DNA from: Ruminococcus flavefaciens AE3010
GTDB lineage: Bacteria > Bacillota > Clostridia > Oscillospirales > Ruminococcaceae
Assembly: GCF_000526795.1 (NCBI RefSeq)
Contig: NZ_JAGT01000001.1
Location: 395,001-459,000 of the forward strand
DNA: 64,000 nt
Direction of reading: 5' to 3'
This document shows, piece by piece, positions 22,025-28,276 of the stretch; within the stretch, counting starts at the first letter, position 1; every line of letters starts with the position of its first letter. The position numbers and the translations under genes were made by a program. The notes under the pieces were generated by a model, which was not told the DNA's origin, did no database searches, and was given only the letters and a program-made list of their open reading frames with translations.

Positions 22025-22391
22025 CTAAAAAGCAGCATTATCAAACATTTTTTTCAGTTTGCCAATGGCTTTTTTCTCCAGACGGGACACATACGACCTT
22101 GAGATACTCATTTTAGCTGCTGTCTCGTTCTGTGTATGGGGCTTACTGCCGTACAGTCCGTATCGGTAGATGATAATATCCAGTTCACGGCTGTCAAGAC
22201 ATTCGTTCAGAAAGCTGTAAAGCTGTCGGGAGCGTATGAGTATATCCACCTGTTCGTGTATGTCGATGCCATCGTCGATAAGGTCCATGAGAGTCAGAGC
22301 ATTGCCGTCCTTGTCAGTCTCAACGGGCTCGTTGATATAAACATCGCCTGCTGATTTTTTTGCGGCACGGAACTGCATGAGTATCTCATTT
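22025..22391 (-). CDS. sigK: sigma-K, C-terminal segment (interrupted gene, 3' part)
   Basis: This segment encodes the last roughly 121 residues of a sporulation sigma-K-type factor: N-E-I-L-M-Q-F-R-A-A-K-K, a D-K-D-G-N linker, and region 4 (LDSRELDIIIYRYGL and the HTH NETAAKMSISRSYVSRLEKKA). The first ATG in frame is at 22378, but there is no ribosome site there, and homologous residues continue upstream (N-E-I-L) right to the element boundary. It lacks regions 2.1-2.4, which lie 5.6 kb away at 27932-28276 on the same strand. SigK runs late mother-cell transcription in endospore formers. It is expected to work only after the intervening element is excised. Confidence 0.9.
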
Positions 22392-24093
22392 GCAACCCTA
22401 TCGCTGCGGCTTTAGGAGGAGGTTCGTCTGAAAGGTCAATTTCTGAATCATCAGAACCAAAAAAGTAGATGTGAGCATTTTCGCCGTCCCATACGATTTT
22501 GTGTATGATACTGCGGAGAGCGTTTCTTTTTTGCTCAACTGTCATATTATCAATGTAGTTAGATGTATTTGAAAGCATTTCAGAAAGAATTTCAAAATCT
22601 TGCTCTGATGTGGCTGTAGTGTTTAATATTTCCATATACTCAGATATTTGTTTTTCGATTGCTTTAATATTTATGTCAATATCATTTATTTGTTTCAAAA
22701 TGTACGTTGAAGCTGCTGAGTCTTGAGCTTGTGCAAGTGATTGCAAAAGATTATTGATTTGTGTATCGTATTTTGTTTTTGATTTTCTTAAATCTTTTAG
22801 TGTTTCTTGATAGGTTTCGGTGTTGTAATCAATATTTCTGATTCCTTGTTTTAAATACTTCATAAATTCGGATTCTACTGACGATAGTTTCTTTATTTCT
22901 TCACAAATAAGACGATCTATCTTATTTCCGTTTGGACGTTTCATATTGCATTTCTGACTTTTACTTTTTTCTTTAAGCTCGCAAACGTAATCATAAATCA
23001 ATTCTCCGCCGCTATTTCGTCTTTGAGAGAGTTTGGGACGCATAAAGCTACCACAGTTGCCACAAATTAATAAACCTGATAACAAAGCGACATTACTTCT
23101 TGGCTTACGATAAGACTTTGAATTGTTTTGATTCAGCAATTTCTGAACTTGAACCCAATCTTTACCTTTTATAATTCCCTTATGTTTGCCAACTGAGATA
23201 ACCCAATCCTTTATGTCATTTATCAAATTAGCTCTTCCTGTTTGCTGATTTGTTTTATTGTATATCATCATTCCGTGAATACAATCGAATTGTTCTTTGT
23301 CAGCATAAATTGTAGCGCCTTCTACCGTAAAGTAATTCCATGCTTGCTCATCAGCGATTAGGTATACAGGATTTCTTAAAATACTTCTTAATGTAAATCG
23401 GGAAAAAGAATTATTACGCTTTGTAAGAATATCATTTTGAATAAAATAGGTTTCTGTTTTTGTTAGTGATTTGTATTCCAGAAATTTTGAGAAAATAGTT
23501 TTTACAACTCTTGCTTCTTCATCAACTAATAAAAGCATTCTTGCCTTTCGTGTTTTTCCGTCAGTAGTAGTGCTTCCAATTGTTTCCTTACTAACGTAAC
23601 CTAACGGTGGATTGCCTCCAAGCCAGCGTCCGTCTCTTGCAAGGAAAAGCATATTATCACGGATACGTTCTGCAATAGTTTCACGTTCAAGCTGAGCAAA
23701 AACCATTGTCATATTAAGCATTGCACGTCCTGTAGAAGTATGGGTATCAAAACTATCATTAACTGCTGCAAATTCAATTCGGTAATATTCCAGTTCATCA
23801 TAAAGCTTCATAAAATCAGAAAGACTTCTGCTGATTCTGTCAAGCTTATAACAAACGATCCTGCGTATATTGTTTTGTCTGCATTCATTTAACATTTTTT
23901 GAAATTGGGGACGATTGGTGTTACCACCTGAATATCCTTCGTCTTCAAAAACAACTATATCTTCCTCTTTTGTGTCAGGATAAAATCTTTTAAGGTAATC
24001 TTTACATGAATCAACCTGACTTTCAATACTTTCACCCTTACCAGTGAATTTTGATTTTCTTGAATAAATAGCGGTTTTACGTAAGTCTGCCAT
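22294..24093 (-). CDS. large serine recombinase (SpoIVCA-like, excisionase of the sigK element)
   Basis: The 599-codon frame encodes a large serine recombinase. Residues 7-150 are the resolvase catalytic domain with Y-S-R-K-S (Ser11), YKLDRISRS and QLERETIAERI. The recombinase domain follows (GRWLGGNPPLGY..), then a zinc ribbon (C344, C347, C371, C382) and a coiled coil (about 430-490). B. subtilis SpoIVCA of the same class excises skin from sigK. The frame crosses the right junction: codons after Gln568 (22390) are read from sigK in another frame, so the last 31 residues are host-encoded. A consensus promoter lies upstream, with a palindrome in its spacer. Confidence 0.92.
   Translation of the reverse strand: MADLRKTAIYSRKSKFTGKGESIESQVDSCKDYLKRFYPDTKEEDIVVFEDEGYSGGNTNRPQFQKMLNECRQNNIRRIVCYKLDRISRSLSDFMKLYDELEYYRIEFAAVNDSFDTHTSTGRAMLNMTMVFAQLERETIAERIRDNMLFLARDGRWLGGNPPLGYVSKETIGSTTTDGKTRKARMLLLVDEEARVVKTIFSKFLEYKSLTKTETYFIQNDILTKRNNSFSRFTLRSILRNPVYLIADEQAWNYFTVEGATIYADKEQFDCIHGMMIYNKTNQQTGRANLINDIKDWVISVGKHKGIIKGKDWVQVQKLLNQNNSKSYRKPRSNVALLSGLLICGNCGSFMRPKLSQRRNSGGELIYDYVCELKEKSKSQKCNMKRPNGNKIDRLICEEIKKLSSVESEFMKYLKQGIRNIDYNTETYQETLKDLRKSKTKYDTQINNLLQSLAQAQDSAASTYILKQINDIDINIKAIEKQISEYMEILNTTATSEQDFEILSEMLSNTSNYIDNMTVEQKRNALRSIIHKIVWDGENAHIYFFGSDDSEIDLSDEPPPKAAAIGLQMRYSCSSVPQKNQQAMFISTSPLRLTRTAML
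22385..22395 (-). other. predicted attachment site at the sigK 3' junction
   Basis: On the minus strand the site reads TTGCAAATGAG. Aligned with the other junction it shares TTG-x-AAA-x-G. Crossover inside AAA (22389-22391) joins sigK codons correctly. Core position is inferred, not demonstrated. Confidence 0.75.
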
Positions 24094-24153
24094 AGTAGCC
24101 TCCTTAAAATAGTGGATAAGTTATGTATCATTGCGGCTTTTACCCCTAAGACT

Positions 24154-24182
24154 ATTATACCGCAAATTTGCTTAATTTGCAA
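24154..24182 (-). promoter_or_regulatory. recombinase promoter with internal palindrome
   Basis: Minus-strand TTGCAA (24177-24182), 17 bp, TATAAT (24154-24159), about 60 bp upstream of the recombinase ATG. The spacer contains the perfect 10-bp palindrome GCAAATTTGC (24162-24171), a likely repressor operator; the neighbouring Xre protein is the obvious candidate. Confidence 0.7.
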
Positions 24183-24233
24183 CACTTTTAACGAAATTAG
24201 ATTAATTATTTTGCAAATAATGTGGAAATAGTA

Positions 24234-24273
24234 ATAAAAAAGTCCTACGATGTGTTATTTCATCATAGGACTT
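24234..24273 (-). terminator. terminator of the Xre gene
   Basis: Stem AAGTCCTATGATG / CATCGTAGGACTT on the minus strand, then a T run at 24234-24240. It isolates the Xre gene from the recombinase promoter downstream. Confidence 0.8.
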
Positions 24274-24276
24274 ATT

Positions 24277-24615
24277 TTATAATTCATCAATTTTATCTGC
24301 TATCGCTCGAATGATAGTCAGAAAAGTCTTTACTTTTCGTTTATCCTTGTTTTGAAGTATGGAATTAAGTGAAGTAAAAAGATTTTCGTCGGGAGCAATG
24401 GAGTCAAAAATCAGATAGTCAGTGCTTATATTAAGTGCCTGTGCGATTCTGAAAAGTGTATCAAGAGAGGGGATTCGTGTACCTCTTTCAATATGACCTA
24501 TATGTGCAGTAGAAAGCTCGCATATTTCTCCGAGCTGTTCCTGCGTAACATGACGTTCTTTTCGTGCCTTGCGAATACGCATTCCAAGTGCGACGTAATC
24601 AAGTTCTTTTTCCAT
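24277..24615 (-). CDS. Xre-family HTH regulator
   Basis: The 112-aa protein has an N-terminal HTH_3 domain (about 10-68: RIRKARKERHVTQEQLGEICELSTAHIGHIERGTRIPSLDTLFRIAQALN) broken here as RIRKARKERHVTQEQLGE and ICELSTAHIGHIERG, and a short helical C-terminal tail. Such proteins commonly repress the recombinase genes of mobile elements. It is divergent from the cargo operon and upstream of the recombinase. Near-identical 15-bp motifs in opposite orientation lie on both sides of the gene (TTTTGCAAATAATGT near 24211 and ACATTATTTACAAAA near 24643) and may be operators. Confidence 0.85.
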   Translation of the reverse strand: MEKELDYVALGMRIRKARKERHVTQEQLGEICELSTAHIGHIERGTRIPSLDTLFRIAQALNISTDYLIFDSIAPDENLFTSLNSILQNKDKRKVKTFLTIIRAIADKIDEL

Positions 24616-24686
24616 AGCTTCACTCCCTTACTCTTTTATTATACATTATTTACAAAACGGAATAAATTAATTTGTAGCATTAAATA

Positions 24687-24715
24687 TTGACTATAAGTAT
24701 TAAAAATGTTATAAT
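24687..24715 (+). promoter_or_regulatory. promoter of the element cargo operon
   Basis: TTGACT (24687-24692), 17 bp, TATAAT (24710-24715), then AGGGGG before ATG 24745. Confidence 0.75.
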
Positions 24716-24744
24716 TAAGAAAATAAAATTAGGGGGTATGTACA

Positions 24745-25173
24745 ATGAAGTTTTATGGTGTTGGTGTAAAGTTAGGAGCTTATACCGATAATCCAATCGA
24801 CATTTTGCAGGAATGTATTGACAATAATGTTTGGTATATGGGCTTTGAGAAAGATGTAAAGCCAAATTATGAAAGCGTTATTGCTGACATTCAGAAAGGC
24901 GATGTGGTTTTTGCAAAATCCCTTCACCAAGCAACGAAAAATGAAATGAAAATAAAGGCTATCGGAATTGTAACTGATGAGCCAATGCCTGCTTCTTATA
25001 GTGTCAATACAGGATTGAGCGTTCTTTGGATAAAAAGCTTTTCGCCGCCTATAAATCTTGCCTATATGAATATCAATTTTATTGAGCATATCAATAGAAG
25101 AAACACTGTTTTTCTTGAAACAGATGAACGAATAATCGAAGAAATCAAAAGATTAATTAAAATGGGGGTATAA
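24745..25173 (+). CDS. unknown element protein, possibly PUA/EVE-like
   Basis: The 142-aa protein is not one I can name. Segments such as W-Y-M-G-F-E-K-D, I-Q-K-G-D-V-V-F-A-K-S and I-K-A-I-G-I-V-T-D-E-P resemble the beta-barrel of PUA/EVE-type nucleic-acid readers, in which a K-G-D-x-V loop is followed by an A-I-G-x-V strand. That would suggest recognition of modified bases, but this is a weak pattern match. It has no signal peptide or membrane segment. The next gene starts 2 nt after its stop, so they are co-translated. Confidence 0.5.
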   Translation: MKFYGVGVKLGAYTDNPIDILQECIDNNVWYMGFEKDVKPNYESVIADIQKGDVVFAKSLHQATKNEMKIKAIGIVTDEPMPASYSVNTGLSVLWIKSFSPPINLAYMNINFIEHINRRNTVFLETDERIIEEIKRLIKMGV

Positions 25174-25175
25174 AA

Positions 25176-25772
25176 ATGATCTGTAAAAAGTGTGGAAAAG
25201 AAATCAATGACGGTATAGATATGTGTCCCGAATGCGGTACAAATGTTAATGGTATGCCTAATCAGCCTAATTTAGTACAAGTATCGGAGAAGCCTAAGAA
25301 AAAGCATAAGGGTTTGATTATTATAGGATACATTTTTGCTTTATTATTAGCCGTAATAATTGTTATTGCTATTTTTGGTGATGATGAAAGTGATAAAATA
25401 GGTTCATCTGATACGAAGATTTCATCAAGTTCAGAATCAGAGGAGTTTTTTAAAGAAACATTTGGCGATACAGAGGAAAATGTAATAAAAACGCTTGCAA
25501 TATCGAAAATTAAGGAAAATCTTGAGTATGATTCAGAAGTTTATGATGTAAAAATTCTTGATAAAGACAGTAATTATAACTATATTGTTCGTGGATGGAC
25601 TAAGAGCCCTGACCTAATAGCAAAATGGTGGACGGTTATGATAAAACTTGATACTAGTACAGGAAAAATGACTACATATACAAAAGGTGAATTTACTGAA
25701 AGTGATGCATGGATAAATAAATATAAAACAGAAAGTGAATATGGTTGGGGAAAAGAAAACCATATTGAATAG
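25176..25772 (+). CDS. zinc-ribbon membrane protein of unknown function
   Basis: The 198-aa protein begins with a zinc ribbon (C3-K-K-C6 and C17-P-E-C20). A polar linker, a basic patch (KPKKKHKG) and one membrane helix (about 48-67) follow, then a Ser-rich spacer and an outer domain of about 110 residues with aromatic motifs such as IVRGWTKSP and AKWWTVMI. This zinc-ribbon / single-span / outer-domain layout is common in Firmicutes and mobile elements, often with unknown roles. The context gives only co-expression with the upstream gene. Confidence 0.65.
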   Translation: MICKKCGKEINDGIDMCPECGTNVNGMPNQPNLVQVSEKPKKKHKGLIIIGYIFALLLAVIIVIAIFGDDESDKIGSSDTKISSSSESEEFFKETFGDTEENVIKTLAISKIKENLEYDSEVYDVKILDKDSNYNYIVRGWTKSPDLIAKWWTVMIKLDTSTGKMTTYTKGEFTESDAWINKYKTESEYGWGKENHIE

Positions 25773-25783
25773 ACATATGCTTT

Positions 25784-25817
25784 AAGCACTTCACGATAAT
25801 GTGGAGTGCTTATTTTT
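25784..25817 (+). terminator. terminator after the zinc-ribbon gene
   Basis: AAGCACTTCAC, loop GATAAT, GTGGAGTGCTT (one G-T pair), then ATTTTT. The rest of the gap to 25969 shows no gene. Confidence 0.75.
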
Positions 25818-25969
25818 ATGTCCTTTTACTTGATTTATTAGGCTACATCAGCGGAAAAATTTTTAATCATTTTGTTTTTTCTAGTAATTGAATTTTGAGT
25901 GCCTGAAGTATTTAGAAATTGTAATCAATGTGATTATGGTTTACTAAATCATGAAAAGAGGGCATTTTT

Positions 25970-26893
25970 ATGGAAAATGCAAATATGAAATTCTTTACTC
26001 GTAAGGCGTATGACTATGAACCCAGTGATAATGCAAGTATCACGTTATACAAGTGTGGTCATATTATCGAGGGCAGATTGGTTGAACGTAAATCTTATAA
26101 TCTCGGTAGGTTGAAACGTCAAAGTAAGGATTTGTATGTTGATACTGAAACTGGTGAAATAGGACAGTATCAGCATGATTTAAGCAAAAATACCATAAGA
26201 AAGATGAAAAGATCTTTTGAAAGACTTCGTATGATTATAAATACGAACTTTTTCGCTGAAATTAATGAACGTGCTATTGTATTGACTTATGCTGAAAAAA
26301 TGGAGGATTTTGACAAAGCGTCAATAGATTTCAAGCGCTTTTGGGAAAAATTCGTATATCACTATAGTGACTTAGAGTATATCCGTGTAATTGAGCCACA
26401 GCAAACAGGGAGCTGGCATATTCATGCACTGGTGAAATCAACGGAATATAGAAATCTTTATATTCCGATAGCTGAAATTACAAAGATTTGGGGACATGGT
26501 TTTGCTTACATTTCTCCAATGACGGGAAATGATAATATAGGAGCATATTTTACAGCCTGTTTTACAAATCTTGACGTGTTTGAAAAAGAATCAGAAGAAC
26601 CAAATAAAAGGAAGTGTATAATTAAGGGCGAGAGATTGCGCTTTTACCCACCAAATAAAAAGTTTTATGCCTGTTCGAGAGGAATAAAAAAGCCTCAGCG
26701 TATAAGTATGACCTTTGGCGAAGCAAAGGAAATGTACAATTTTGAGAATTGTAATTATAAAAAAGCCTATGAAGTTATTGAAAAGAATCCAGATACAGAA
26801 GTTGAAAAAGTTGTAAATCATACAATGAGAATTCAAATCAACTTAAAATGTAAGAAAAAGCATAACGGACATACTGGCAATAATAAGCTGTAA
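25970..26893 (+). CDS. HUH-type Rep-like protein
   Basis: The 307-aa protein resembles the replication initiators of small clostridial plasmids and integrated elements. The central Y-I-R-V-I-E-P-Q-Q-T-G-S-W-H-I-H-A-L-V segment has the H-x-H metal motif (H150, H152) of HUH endonucleases. A downstream N-I-G-A-Y-F-T-A-C segment supplies a candidate nicking tyrosine (Y193), although the usual following Lys is not in the standard place. C-terminal residues are basic. Rolling-circle initiation is inferred. The start has an AGAGGG site about 9 nt upstream. Confidence 0.7.
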   Translation: MENANMKFFTRKAYDYEPSDNASITLYKCGHIIEGRLVERKSYNLGRLKRQSKDLYVDTETGEIGQYQHDLSKNTIRKMKRSFERLRMIINTNFFAEINERAIVLTYAEKMEDFDKASIDFKRFWEKFVYHYSDLEYIRVIEPQQTGSWHIHALVKSTEYRNLYIPIAEITKIWGHGFAYISPMTGNDNIGAYFTACFTNLDVFEKESEEPNKRKCIIKGERLRFYPPNKKFYACSRGIKKPQRISMTFGEAKEMYNFENCNYKKAYEVIEKNPDTEVEKVVNHTMRIQINLKCKKKHNGHTGNNKL

Positions 26894-26908
26894 TATGGGG
26901 GTAAGAGT

Positions 26909-27091
26909 ATGAAAATAATTCCTCATTATCCAAAAACAGCAGATATTCAAAAAAGGTTATGCAGTAATTTAGCTGAGTTTTATGCAACAACAGCGATTGA
27001 AAGGATTCAGAAAATGAATCTATCCGAAGAAGAAACAAAAAAGCTTATTACAATGATTTGTGATAAAATTGTAGTGAAAAGCAATACATAA
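26909..27091 (+). CDS. 60-aa protein of unknown function
   Basis: A short charged helical protein whose ATG has a strong GGGGGTAAG site and follows the Rep-like gene by 15 nt, which supports expression. No motif is recognised. It may be an accessory of the Rep or recombinase; this is speculation. A good terminator follows. Confidence 0.6.
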   Translation: MKIIPHYPKTADIQKRLCSNLAEFYATTAIERIQKMNLSEEETKKLITMICDKIVVKSNT

Positions 27092-27098
27092 ATCGACA

Positions 27099-27128
27099 AA
27101 AGACGGAGCGTTACAACTCCGTCTTTCT
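27099..27128 (+). terminator. terminator after the cargo operon
   Basis: AAAGACGGAG / CTCCGTCTTT with an 8-nt loop. The following 200 bp to 27327 hold no gene that I can see. Confidence 0.85.
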
Positions 27129-27327
27129 ATTTATTGCAAGTAATGGGAATGAATAAGCCTGAAACTTTGATAGCTATGTTAAAAAGGCTATTTGCATTGA
27201 TAACGGATTCAAATTTATTTATTAATTTCATCTTCCTCTTTTCACGCCTCTCAGAGCTTCTCTAAAGCGTTTGATTTTTAAGGGCAAACGGGTTCGCGAA
27301 AAGAACTGCAAGCTGTTCACGAGCCTG

Positions 27328-27852
27328 TCAGACGTTATGGAGCGCGTTTAGAAGTTCGGAAAGCTTTTTAAAAGTCTTTTTGGGAATTATAGACTTGTCC
27401 TGCTCCCATTTTTTGAGAGTTCCGAGAGGCGTTTTCATATTTTGAGCTAACTGGGATTGTGTAAGCTTCATTGACTTACGCAGTCCCTTTATTTGTTTTC
27501 CTTGTCCACTGTAAAGAAAAGTGTTATAGTCATCAAGAAGTAAAGAGATATCAATGTTAAATAAAGCTGCTGCTTTTGAAAGTTTATCCAACGGGTAGGC
27601 TTCGAGAATGTTATCTTCATAACGAGAGTAAGTTGTTCTGTCTACGCCTATAACCTTAGCAACTTCTCGCTGTAATAATCCGTTGTTGATACGATACCAT
27701 TTGAGCTTGTCCGATACTGTTTCAAGTTCATCTGGAGCAGGTGAGTTCTGCAAGAATAACTGCGATCTTGTAAGGTGACGGTTATTGATAAAGCGTATTG
27801 TATGGAGAAACAGGGGAGCGTATTTGATAATACCGTTGTATTTCTTATACAT
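27328..27852 (-). CDS. protein with two Xre-type HTH domains
   Basis: From the first internal ATG the protein is 174 aa, with two HTH_3-like domains: one at about 50-105 (LKWYRINNGLLQREVAKVIG, DRTTYSRYED) and one at about 120-172 (IKGLRKSMKLTQSQLAQNMK, TPLGTLKKWEQDK). No ribosome site precedes that ATG. The open frame continues upstream without a stop to the element boundary at 27957 and, in the integrated state, into sigK in another frame. In the excised circle it would be in frame with the recombinase, so its real start may depend on the state of the element. The role is probably DNA binding. Confidence 0.65.
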   Translation of the reverse strand: MYKKYNGIIKYAPLFLHTIRFINNRHLTRSQLFLQNSPAPDELETVSDKLKWYRINNGLLQREVAKVIGVDRTTYSRYEDNILEAYPLDKLSKAAALFNIDISLLLDDYNTFLYSGQGKQIKGLRKSMKLTQSQLAQNMKTPLGTLKKWEQDKSIIPKKTFKKLSELLNALHNV

Positions 27853-27931
27853 GATGAAGAAATTGTTGCTGATTTTGTGATAAATTCGCCAAATATTGGA
27901 AAAGGCTCTCGAATTGCTTCCTATTGAGTTA

Positions 27932-28276
27932 TTAGAGCCGTAATGATAGTGTTGCTTTTTCAATGCATCTGCTTGCATATGTGGCAAATTTAGCTCCCTT
28001 TGAGTAGTCAAAGGAGGAGACAGCCTTTATAAGACCTACTGTACCTACGGATATAAGTTCATCCTGTTCGTCTGCTCCCGAGGCGTATTTTTTGACGATA
28101 TGAGCAACAAGTCGGAGATTGTGCTCAATAAGCCTGTTCCTTGCGGAGCTGTCACCCTTTGACATAAGTTCAAAGCATTCTTCCTCCTCTTTTTTGGAAA
28201 GGGGCTTGGGAAAAACGGAAGAGCTTTCGATATGCAGGGCGAAAAAGAAAAGATTCCGCAGCAATTCAATAAACAT
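27932..28276 (-). CDS. sigK: sigma-K, N-terminal segment (interrupted gene, 5' part)
   Basis: The frame gives 114 residues, of which the first 106 are sigma-K-like: a hydrophobic start, FPKPLSKKEEEECFELMSKGD, IEHNLRLVAHIVKKY, ELISVGTVGLIKAV and ATYASRCIE (region 2). The last eight residues (KATLSLRL) are element-encoded and end at a stop 25 nt inside the element. The hydrophobic N-terminus with F-P-x-P-L matches sigma-K rather than sigma-E. The ATG has an excellent GAGGTGAT site. Joined to the 3' part after excision, the product would be about 227 residues, the normal SigK size. Confidence 0.9.
   Translation of the reverse strand: MFIELLRNLFFFALHIESSSVFPKPLSKKEEEECFELMSKGDSSARNRLIEHNLRLVAHIVKKYASGADEQDELISVGTVGLIKAVSSFDYSKGAKFATYASRCIEKATLSLRL
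27954..27963 (-). other. predicted attachment site at the sigK 5' junction
   Basis: On the minus strand the site reads TTGAAAAAGC and shares TTG-x-AAA-x-G with the other junction. Crossover in AAA (27957-27959) is predicted. Confidence 0.75.

What the first reader, a model, noticed from the sequence alone, without database searches (positions are those of the whole stretch)
22025..28276. Compact skin-type element splits sigma-K
A sporulation sigma-K gene is present as two complementary halves on the same strand. The 5' half (27932-28276) has region 2 and a strong ribosome site, the 3' half (22025-22391) has region 4, and a 5.57-kb element lies between them carrying a large serine recombinase. 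The known skin elements of B. subtilis and C. difficile use the same strategy but are prophage-derived and roughly 3-9 times larger. A minimal version in a Ruminococcus-like genome is new to me and bears on whether this organism sporulates.
Basis: partly seen in the sequence, partly recalled or inferred. Interest (0 to 1): 0.92.

Follow-up and report, generated by a model that had tools for sequence, protein, structure and literature searches.

The report
Small excisable element splitting sigma-K gene
In a Ruminococcus-type bacterium the gene for the late spore-formation switch sigma-K is cut in two by a 5.6-kb DNA element that looks built to be cut out again during sporulation, and it belongs to a family of such elements found across the Clostridia.

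Summary
sigK is split: the 5' part (27959-28276, -) matches SigK model positions 9-114, the 3' part (22025-22390, -) positions 115-226, 5,568 bp apart; no other sigK was found in the genome. Joined at the inferred crossover, they give a 227-aa SigK in frame. The insert is low-GC (34% against 46%), carries a large serine recombinase (LSR) ending at attR, and is not prophage-like: it has a rolling-circle Rep, regulators and small genes.

It is neither unique nor the smallest. The 80 best LSR relatives kept from named genomes all lie at a split sigK (gaps 2.65-15.6 kb where both halves are held). An undescribed small protein (26909-27091, +) occurs in 23 of 23 loci with both halves and an LSR. 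Its upstream region holds a rigid sigma-E-like promoter template (21 of 31 loci; 5 of 11 held-out; about 0.01 expected per set). I propose it as the recombination directionality factor, the role of CD1234 in C. difficile. Excision itself is inferred, not shown.

Noticed beside it: spoIIID, another mother-cell regulator gene, looks split in the same way in 8 Clostridia genomes, two of which also have a broken sigK. My searches found no report of that.

The parts
27959..28276 (-). sigK 5' part, codons 1-106 (region 2 start); the ORF runs on to 27932 in element sequence
22025..22390 (-). sigK 3' part, codons 107-227 (region 4); own ATG at 22378
22391..27958 (.). the 5,568-bp element (ends uncertain by the few bases of the A-run in which the crossover lies); GC 33.7%
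27934..27966 (-). attL: sigK core GCATTGAAAAAGCAAC and element arm ending ..ACGGCTCT
22381..22413 (-). attR: element arm AAAGCCGCAGCG.. and core GGGTTGCAAATGAGATAC
22294..24093 (-). large serine recombinase; its frame runs through attR into sigK out of frame
26909..27091 (+). sm60, 60 aa, candidate recombination directionality factor; family without Pfam, NCBIfam or PHROG model hits for this member
26862..26885 (+). promoter template ATA-NN-KKACA-N10-MATA upstream of sm60 (sigma-E-like with a SpoIIID-like box, inferred); the only match in the window on both strands
27099..27126 (+). terminator-like stem-loop after sm60
25970..26893 (+). rolling-circle replication protein (REP_ORF2-G2P)
27328..27903 (-). 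HTH2, tandem helix-turn-helix protein beside attL, same direction as sigK (ORF open to 28011); present in part of the family
24277..24615 (-). RstR-like helix-turn-helix regulator
24745..25173 (+). 142-aa protein, no family hit
25176..25772 (+). 198-aa protein with an N-terminal zinc ribbon (below Pfam cut-off)

Best explanation
A skin-type, developmentally excised integrative element. Shown by sequence: an LSR-bearing element sits between codons 106 and 107 of sigK, between att sites whose element arms form an inverted repeat, so that exact removal restores sigK in frame. Inferred: (1) the LSR is made independently of sporulation and by itself integrates but does not excise; (2) in the mother cell sigma-E, perhaps with SpoIIID, transcribes sm60, which acts as the directionality factor and turns the LSR to attL x attR recombination; (3) the element leaves as a 5.57-kb circle, sigK is joined in the terminal mother cell and (pro-)sigma-K is made; (4) the forespore keeps the element, so it is inherited. 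The rolling-circle Rep suggests descent from a small plasmid or phage satellite rather than a tailed prophage.
For: In-frame joins without stops in 6 of 6 pairs and SigK score of the join. att inverted repeat. 80 of 80 kept LSR relatives lie at a split sigK; sigK-locus LSRs cluster on a tree (2 changes against 18.1 shuffled). sm60 in 23 of 23 loci with both halves and an LSR, 21 distinct, 6 of them seeds of the profile, and a sigK half beside it in 9 of 9 further class genomes. Rigid promoter template before sm60 in 21 of 31 and 5 of 11 held-out loci; its looser form in 0 of 79 LSR upstreams. Same logic as C. difficile, where the LSR is constitutive and the 72-aa RDF CD1234 is under sigma-E and SpoIIID (PMC5025042: passages and sections 10, 13). 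Sporulation genes present.
Against: No joined sigK or circle was seen. YabG in 0 of 6 genomes; SpoIIR and SpoIIID matches mostly under the curated cut-offs. 10 of 31 and 6 of 11 sm60 upstreams lack the template. The putative SpoIIID box lies between the -35 and -10 elements, not upstream as proposed for CD1234. sm60 members are mostly neutral to basic whereas CD1234 has pI 5.5; homology to CD1234 was not tested, and SprB is unlike. dN/dS includes time before insertion.
Confidence: 0.8

Rival explanations
1. An ordinary integrative element that uses a conserved sigK codon as attB in a lineage that no longer sporulates; sigK is simply broken and never rejoined.
For: YabG absent in 6 of 6; relatives G006 and G009 without any SigK match; Ruminococcus albus 7 is listed as an asporogenous species lacking several sporulation genes (PMC3533761 Table 5 passage).
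Against: No stops in either half of 6 split genes; dN/dS 0.015-0.094 in the 7 of 12 comparisons that could be computed; SASP, SpoIVA, SpoIIR and SpoIIID present; conserved sm60 promoter.
Confidence: 0.1
2. A mobile element whose excision serves its own transfer and is not tied to development; repair of sigK is incidental.
For: Rolling-circle Rep and RstR-like regulator; at least 4 changes of split/intact state on the sigK tree.
Against: sm60 upstream template of sigma-E type, not seen at the LSR; 80 of 80 kept relatives at sigK.
Confidence: 0.07
3. HTH2, not sm60, is the directionality factor, co-transcribed with the sigK 5' half from the sigK promoter.
For: HTH2 lies beside attL in the sigK direction in the window and in several relatives.
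Against: Found in only 10 of 23 rows with both halves and an LSR and missing from compact elements such as L087 and L108; 0 of 11 HTH2 upstreams carry the promoter motif.
Confidence: 0.08
4. The two sigK parts act as a two-piece sigma factor without DNA joining.
For: The 3' half has an in-frame ATG at 22378; in L040 and L041 the LSR stop overlaps that ATG by one base, which could couple translation.
Against: The cut falls inside conserved region 2 (one search match ends at the junction); att symmetry and LSR predict excision. No such split sigma factor is known to me (recalled).
Confidence: 0.03

Closest known systems
skinCd of Clostridioides difficile (CD1231 LSR, CD1234 RDF)
   Same: sigK split; LSR immediately upstream of the sigK 3' part; att sites with inverted repeats; small RDF gene with sigma-E promoter (PMC5025042: passages, sections 10 and 13)
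   Different: skinCd has 19 genes and is prophage-like; [quoted passage not shown] Homology of CD1231/CD1234 to this LSR and sm60 was not tested.
skinBs of Bacillus subtilis (SpoIVCA)
   Same: Element splitting sigK, removed by a serine recombinase in the mother cell (PMC5025042 abstract)
   Different: Prophage-derived and much larger (about 48 kb, recalled); recombinase gene itself made specifically in the mother cell (abstract of PMC5025042)
gin in gerE of Bacillus cereus ATCC10987 (GirC, GirX)
   Same: A non-phage element split-and-repair system in a sporulation gene with LSR and directionality factor (PMC5595907: abstract and Discussion)
   Different: Target gerE; three recombinases; no Rep described in what I read
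sigK prophages of Clostridium tetani and C. perfringens
   Same: Serine-recombinase elements residing in sigK (PMC5553647, passages)
   Different: Full prophages; about 57 kb in C. tetani E88 by the coordinates in the Fig 6 legend
yin in yabG of Clostridium botulinum
   Same: Intervening element with LSR and a predicted small RDF (PMC10747680, passages)
   Different: Target yabG; prophage-like

Membership tests
skin-type sigK-intervening element | sigK present as two complementary parts on one strand around one element | tested here: met
skin-type sigK-intervening element | Precise removal restores an in-frame sigK | tested here: met
   joined in script: 227 codons, no stop; 282 bits to NF004471, cut-off 252
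skin-type sigK-intervening element | Element codes for a site-specific recombinase | tested here: met
   three LSR domains
skin-type sigK-intervening element | att sites with inverted repeats | tested here: met
   window 16 of 20; shuffled mean 8.7, maximum 14
skin-type sigK-intervening element | Excision in the mother cell during sporulation, with a circular product | not testable with these tools
   needs cells or reads
skin-type sigK-intervening element | Prophage origin (true of skinBs and skinCd; not needed for the mechanism) | tested here: not met
   no phage structural genes among the scanned ORFs of at least 60 aa; the PHROG hits are integrase, regulators, rolling-circle Rep and unknowns
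Large serine recombinase | Resolvase, recombinase and zinc-ribbon domains | tested here: met
   all over Pfam cut-offs
Recombination directionality factor (sm60) | Constant companion of the LSR in complete elements | tested here: met
   23 of 23 rows
Recombination directionality factor (sm60) | Mother-cell-type promoter | tested here: inconclusive
   template in 21 of 31 and 5 of 11 held-out loci; identity of the sigma factor and of the box is inferred
Recombination directionality factor (sm60) | Changes the direction of the LSR reaction | not testable with these tools
   needs a recombination assay
skinCd family (CD1231/CD1234) | Sequence homology of LSR and RDF to CD1231 and CD1234 | not tested
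   no skinCd sequence was reached

The most novel reading that the evidence does not exclude
Programmed genome excision is a widespread, layered switch in Clostridia. A sigK-dedicated LSR clade and a dedicated small directionality factor gate sigma-K, and in some species a second element family gates spoIIID as well, so that the mother cell would have to excise DNA from spoIIID before SpoIIID can help drive excision from sigK. The window's element is a plasmid-like, Rep-bearing form whose circle may replicate in the doomed mother cell.
Probability: 0.35. Interest if true: 0.88.

Novelty: new variant of a known kind. Interest (0 to 1): 0.74.

Why it matters
It turns skin, usually told as a curiosity of a few model spore-formers, into a recurrent system of Clostridia with a candidate dedicated directionality factor and a stereotyped upstream promoter template. 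Two matters become testable: whether Ruminococcus-type and other gut Clostridia thought not to sporulate do so, and how LSR directionality evolves. Split sigK (and spoIIID) genes can also be scored as missing or broken when sporulation is predicted from gene content. Matched LSR and small-protein pairs with natural att sites may be useful tools.

Tried and rejected
HTH2 was my first directionality-factor candidate (note). I dropped it when L087 and other compact elements proved to lack it and to hold sm60. 'Minimal element' was rejected (L087 2.65 kb, L108 3.56 kb). I sought skinCd for a CD1231/CD1234 comparison in viral contigs with the LSR and with SigK, and looked at the Terrisporobacter phage with the nearest phage LSR, 34.8% identity: no sm60 there and no skinCd found. 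SprB of SPbeta against the sm60 profile: no similarity. sm60 against PDB sequences: one weak partial hit (9hnh, 6.5e-05 over 26 positions), judged uninformative; the rest above E 0.1. AlphaFold gives sm60 as a helical hairpin, mean pLDDT 79.7; no fold search was run, because such a hairpin would match much. My first sigma-E score was weak against shuffles in most loci. The composite motif was then seen by eye, so its patterns are post hoc; held-out loci were used for the test (looser pattern 6 of 11; rigid template 5 of 11; L248/L249 are near-copies). sigma-70-like sites in the element are not above shuffles (26 against 27.3), so the promoter-like site upstream of the LSR (24182-24154) is weak.
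Full report
Observation. The 5' ORF 27932-28276 (-) matches TIGR02846 (SigK) at positions 9-114, the 3' ORF 22025-22378 (-) at 115-226. The only full-length hit to that model in the 3.7-Mb genome, at 1693384, is SigE by my reading. The gap is 5,568 bp. GC is 33.7% in the insert, 45.9% and 45.5% in the 10-kb flanks.

att sites. Set against 30 same-genus loci with intact sigK, the 5' junction reads GCATTGAAAAAGCAAC, the 3' junction GGGTTGCAAATGAGATAC, and the intact genes mostly TG(C/T)AT(T/A/C)GA(A/G)AA(T/C)GA. The crossover thus lies in the A-run of codons 106-107. The inferred attP arms form an inverted repeat: 16 of 20 in the window; mean 14.0 and minimum 10 over 23 loci; shuffled mean 8.7, maximum 14 (both use the best of several offsets; L104 was dropped because its 5' profile hit was partial, L046 and L047 because they are intact, and four loci because they were held under another id). 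Joining gives 227 codons without stop in 6 of 6 pairs, and the window product scores 282 bits against the NF004471 cut-off of 252.

Spread in the genus. In 100 same-genus genomes, own included, 72 have a single SigK-scoring frame by my reading of the table. The other 28 were searched again at E 1e-22: both halves on one contig in 4 (G000, G013, G015, G063), on two contigs in 2 (G031, G083), only a 5' half ending at the junction in 1 (G023). The remaining 21 show no SigK match or a partial one; two of these partial genes run through the site unbroken (G011, G078; L046 and L047), and G006 and G009, 95% and 99% complete, show only the SigE hit. On the sigK tree of 30 intact and 6 split genes starred branches force at least 4 changes of state, as many as shuffled labels would give. 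dN/dS of halves against the nearest intact gene is 0.015-0.094 in the 7 of 12 comparisons where dS could be computed; some dS are near saturation and the figure includes time before insertion, so it is supporting only.

Spread in Clostridia. A scan of named genomes with the LSR alignment kept the best 80 of 482 relatives. All 80 are at a split sigK: 75 with the 3' half directly after the LSR, 3 against an inverted 5' half (L076, L100, L101), 1 with the 3' half 1,450 nt on (L124), 1 whose contig ends after the LSR but has a 5' half upstream (L102). Record titles include Ruminococcus albus AR67, Faecalibacterium prausnitzii, Flavonifractor, Lacrimispora, Holdemania and [Clostridium] viride. I built a tree of 59 LSRs: 33 that I chose from sigK loci and the 26 best different ones from viral contigs, 4 of which are at sigK. 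sigK-locus LSRs need 2 changes against 18.1 shuffled. Three 'elsewhere' rows fall near them (L135, L137, L139); the contigs of the first two end just after the LSR, so their site is unknown, and L139 is a long branch. Gaps between halves run from 2.65 kb (L087) to 15.6 kb (L251).

Directionality factor. In 23 of 23 rows holding both halves and an LSR (21 distinct loci; 6 of them gave the profile's seeds), a profile finds a relative of the window's 60-aa ORF 26909-27091. HTH2 is found in 10 and Rep in 9 of the 23. The window member has no hit in Pfam, NCBIfam or PHROGs; other members have scattered weak hits. 550 relatives pass E 0.01 in the protein database; of the 120 listed few bear a name, and none beyond 'hypothetical protein'. 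A class-wide search found it in 9 of 390 other genomes, and all 9 have a sigK half within the fetched stretch. AlphaFold predicts a helical hairpin.

Promoter. Upstream of sm60 the 6-mers CGGACA and TGTACA stand out in an unguided count, beside ribosome-site words. The rigid template ATA-NN-KKACA-N10-MATA occurs in 21 of 31 loci and in 5 of 11 held-out loci (two of them near-copies), against 0.01 in shuffles in each set. The looser form occurs in 0 of 79 LSR, 0 of 11 HTH2 and 2 of 17 sigK upstreams. The window has one match on both strands, 26862-26885, before sm60. In 75 Clostridia loci there are 19 matches in 2.5 Mb of strand, 16 of them before sm60 by comparing. I read ATA and MATA as sigma-E -35 and -10 elements and KKACA as a SpoIIID-like box. 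The letters of those consensus sequences are recalled; position ranges were seen in the Fig 4 legend of PMC517825 (passages). In C. difficile the proposed SpoIIID site lies upstream of the promoter (PMC5025042 section 10), so the identity of the factor is inferred.

Sporulation. SpoIIID, SpoIVA, SpoIIR and SASP match in 6 of 6 split genomes. SpoIVA and SASP are over the curated cut-off in 6 of 6, SpoIIID in 1 and SpoIIR in 2, and SpoIIID is itself split in G083. YabG is found in 0 of 6. B. subtilis, among the control genomes, rings in each of these five searches. SigK in this genus keeps a hydrophobic N-terminal segment, so proteolytic processing may add to excision, unlike C. difficile sigma-K, which lacks a pro-sequence (PMC5025042 abstract).

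spoIIID. In G083 spoIIID is cut by about 20.5 kb, with an LSR ending about 20 nt before the 3' half and a shared 15-bp core. That the 5' piece at the end of contig C12 continues into C13 rests on their shared end sequence. The LSR was sought in 391 class genomes: 19 have a match at E 1e-70 or better, 20 places. In 5 of the 20 loci a spoIIID 3' half starting at the same codon follows the LSR, and in 1 a 5' half lies beside it. A direct search of 11 chosen genomes finds both halves in 7 (G083, G397, G389, G160, G147, G235, G158), only the 3' half in G333, one uncut gene in each of G415 and G225, and nothing in G171. One-contig gaps are about 11.1, 20.1, 20.6 and 64.7 kb. G083 and G397 also have a broken sigK with sm60-type element genes (only the 5' half was seen in G397; in G083 sm60 is weakly matched).

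Literature. Full-text searches of the open library listed, by titles and abstracts, no paper on split sigK in Ruminococcus or on split spoIIID; subscription papers are mostly not held. I read passages or sections of PMC5025042, PMC5595907, PMC10747680, PMC5553647, PMC3533761, PMC10294663 and PMC517825, no whole paper.

Verdict. A real skin-type element, compact and not phage-like, one member of a wide family. Anatomy is shown; regulated excision is inferred by analogy and promoter evidence.

Noticed in passing
G083 (L232, L233, L256), G397 (L257), G389 (L259), G333 (L260), G160 (L269), G147 (L276), G235 (L262), G158 (L261): spoIIID looks split at one site by elements of about 11-65 kb with their own LSR clade; both halves found in 7 genomes, only the 3' half in G333.
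   Followed up: partly
L232 end and L233 start (G083:C12/C13): Contig C12 ends exactly at the end of the shared spoIIID core, and C13 repeats its last bases: an assembly branch that could reflect excised and integrated forms in one sample.
   Followed up: no
L076, L100, L101 and viral contig L134: The LSR lies against the 5' half of sigK in inverted orientation, as if the element were inserted the other way round.
   Followed up: no
L042 and L043 (G031:C33 and C11): The sigK 5' half is near a contig end while the 3' half lies 654 kb inside another contig: rearrangement or misassembly.
   Followed up: partly
L217-L221, L224, L228, L229: Viral contigs with sigK cut about 30 codons further on, with only distant LSR matches: another sigK insertion site.
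   Followed up: no
window 22294-24093: The LSR frame continues through attR into sigK, so excision would change its C-terminus; in L040 and L041 its stop codon overlaps the ATG of the sigK 3' half.
   Followed up: no
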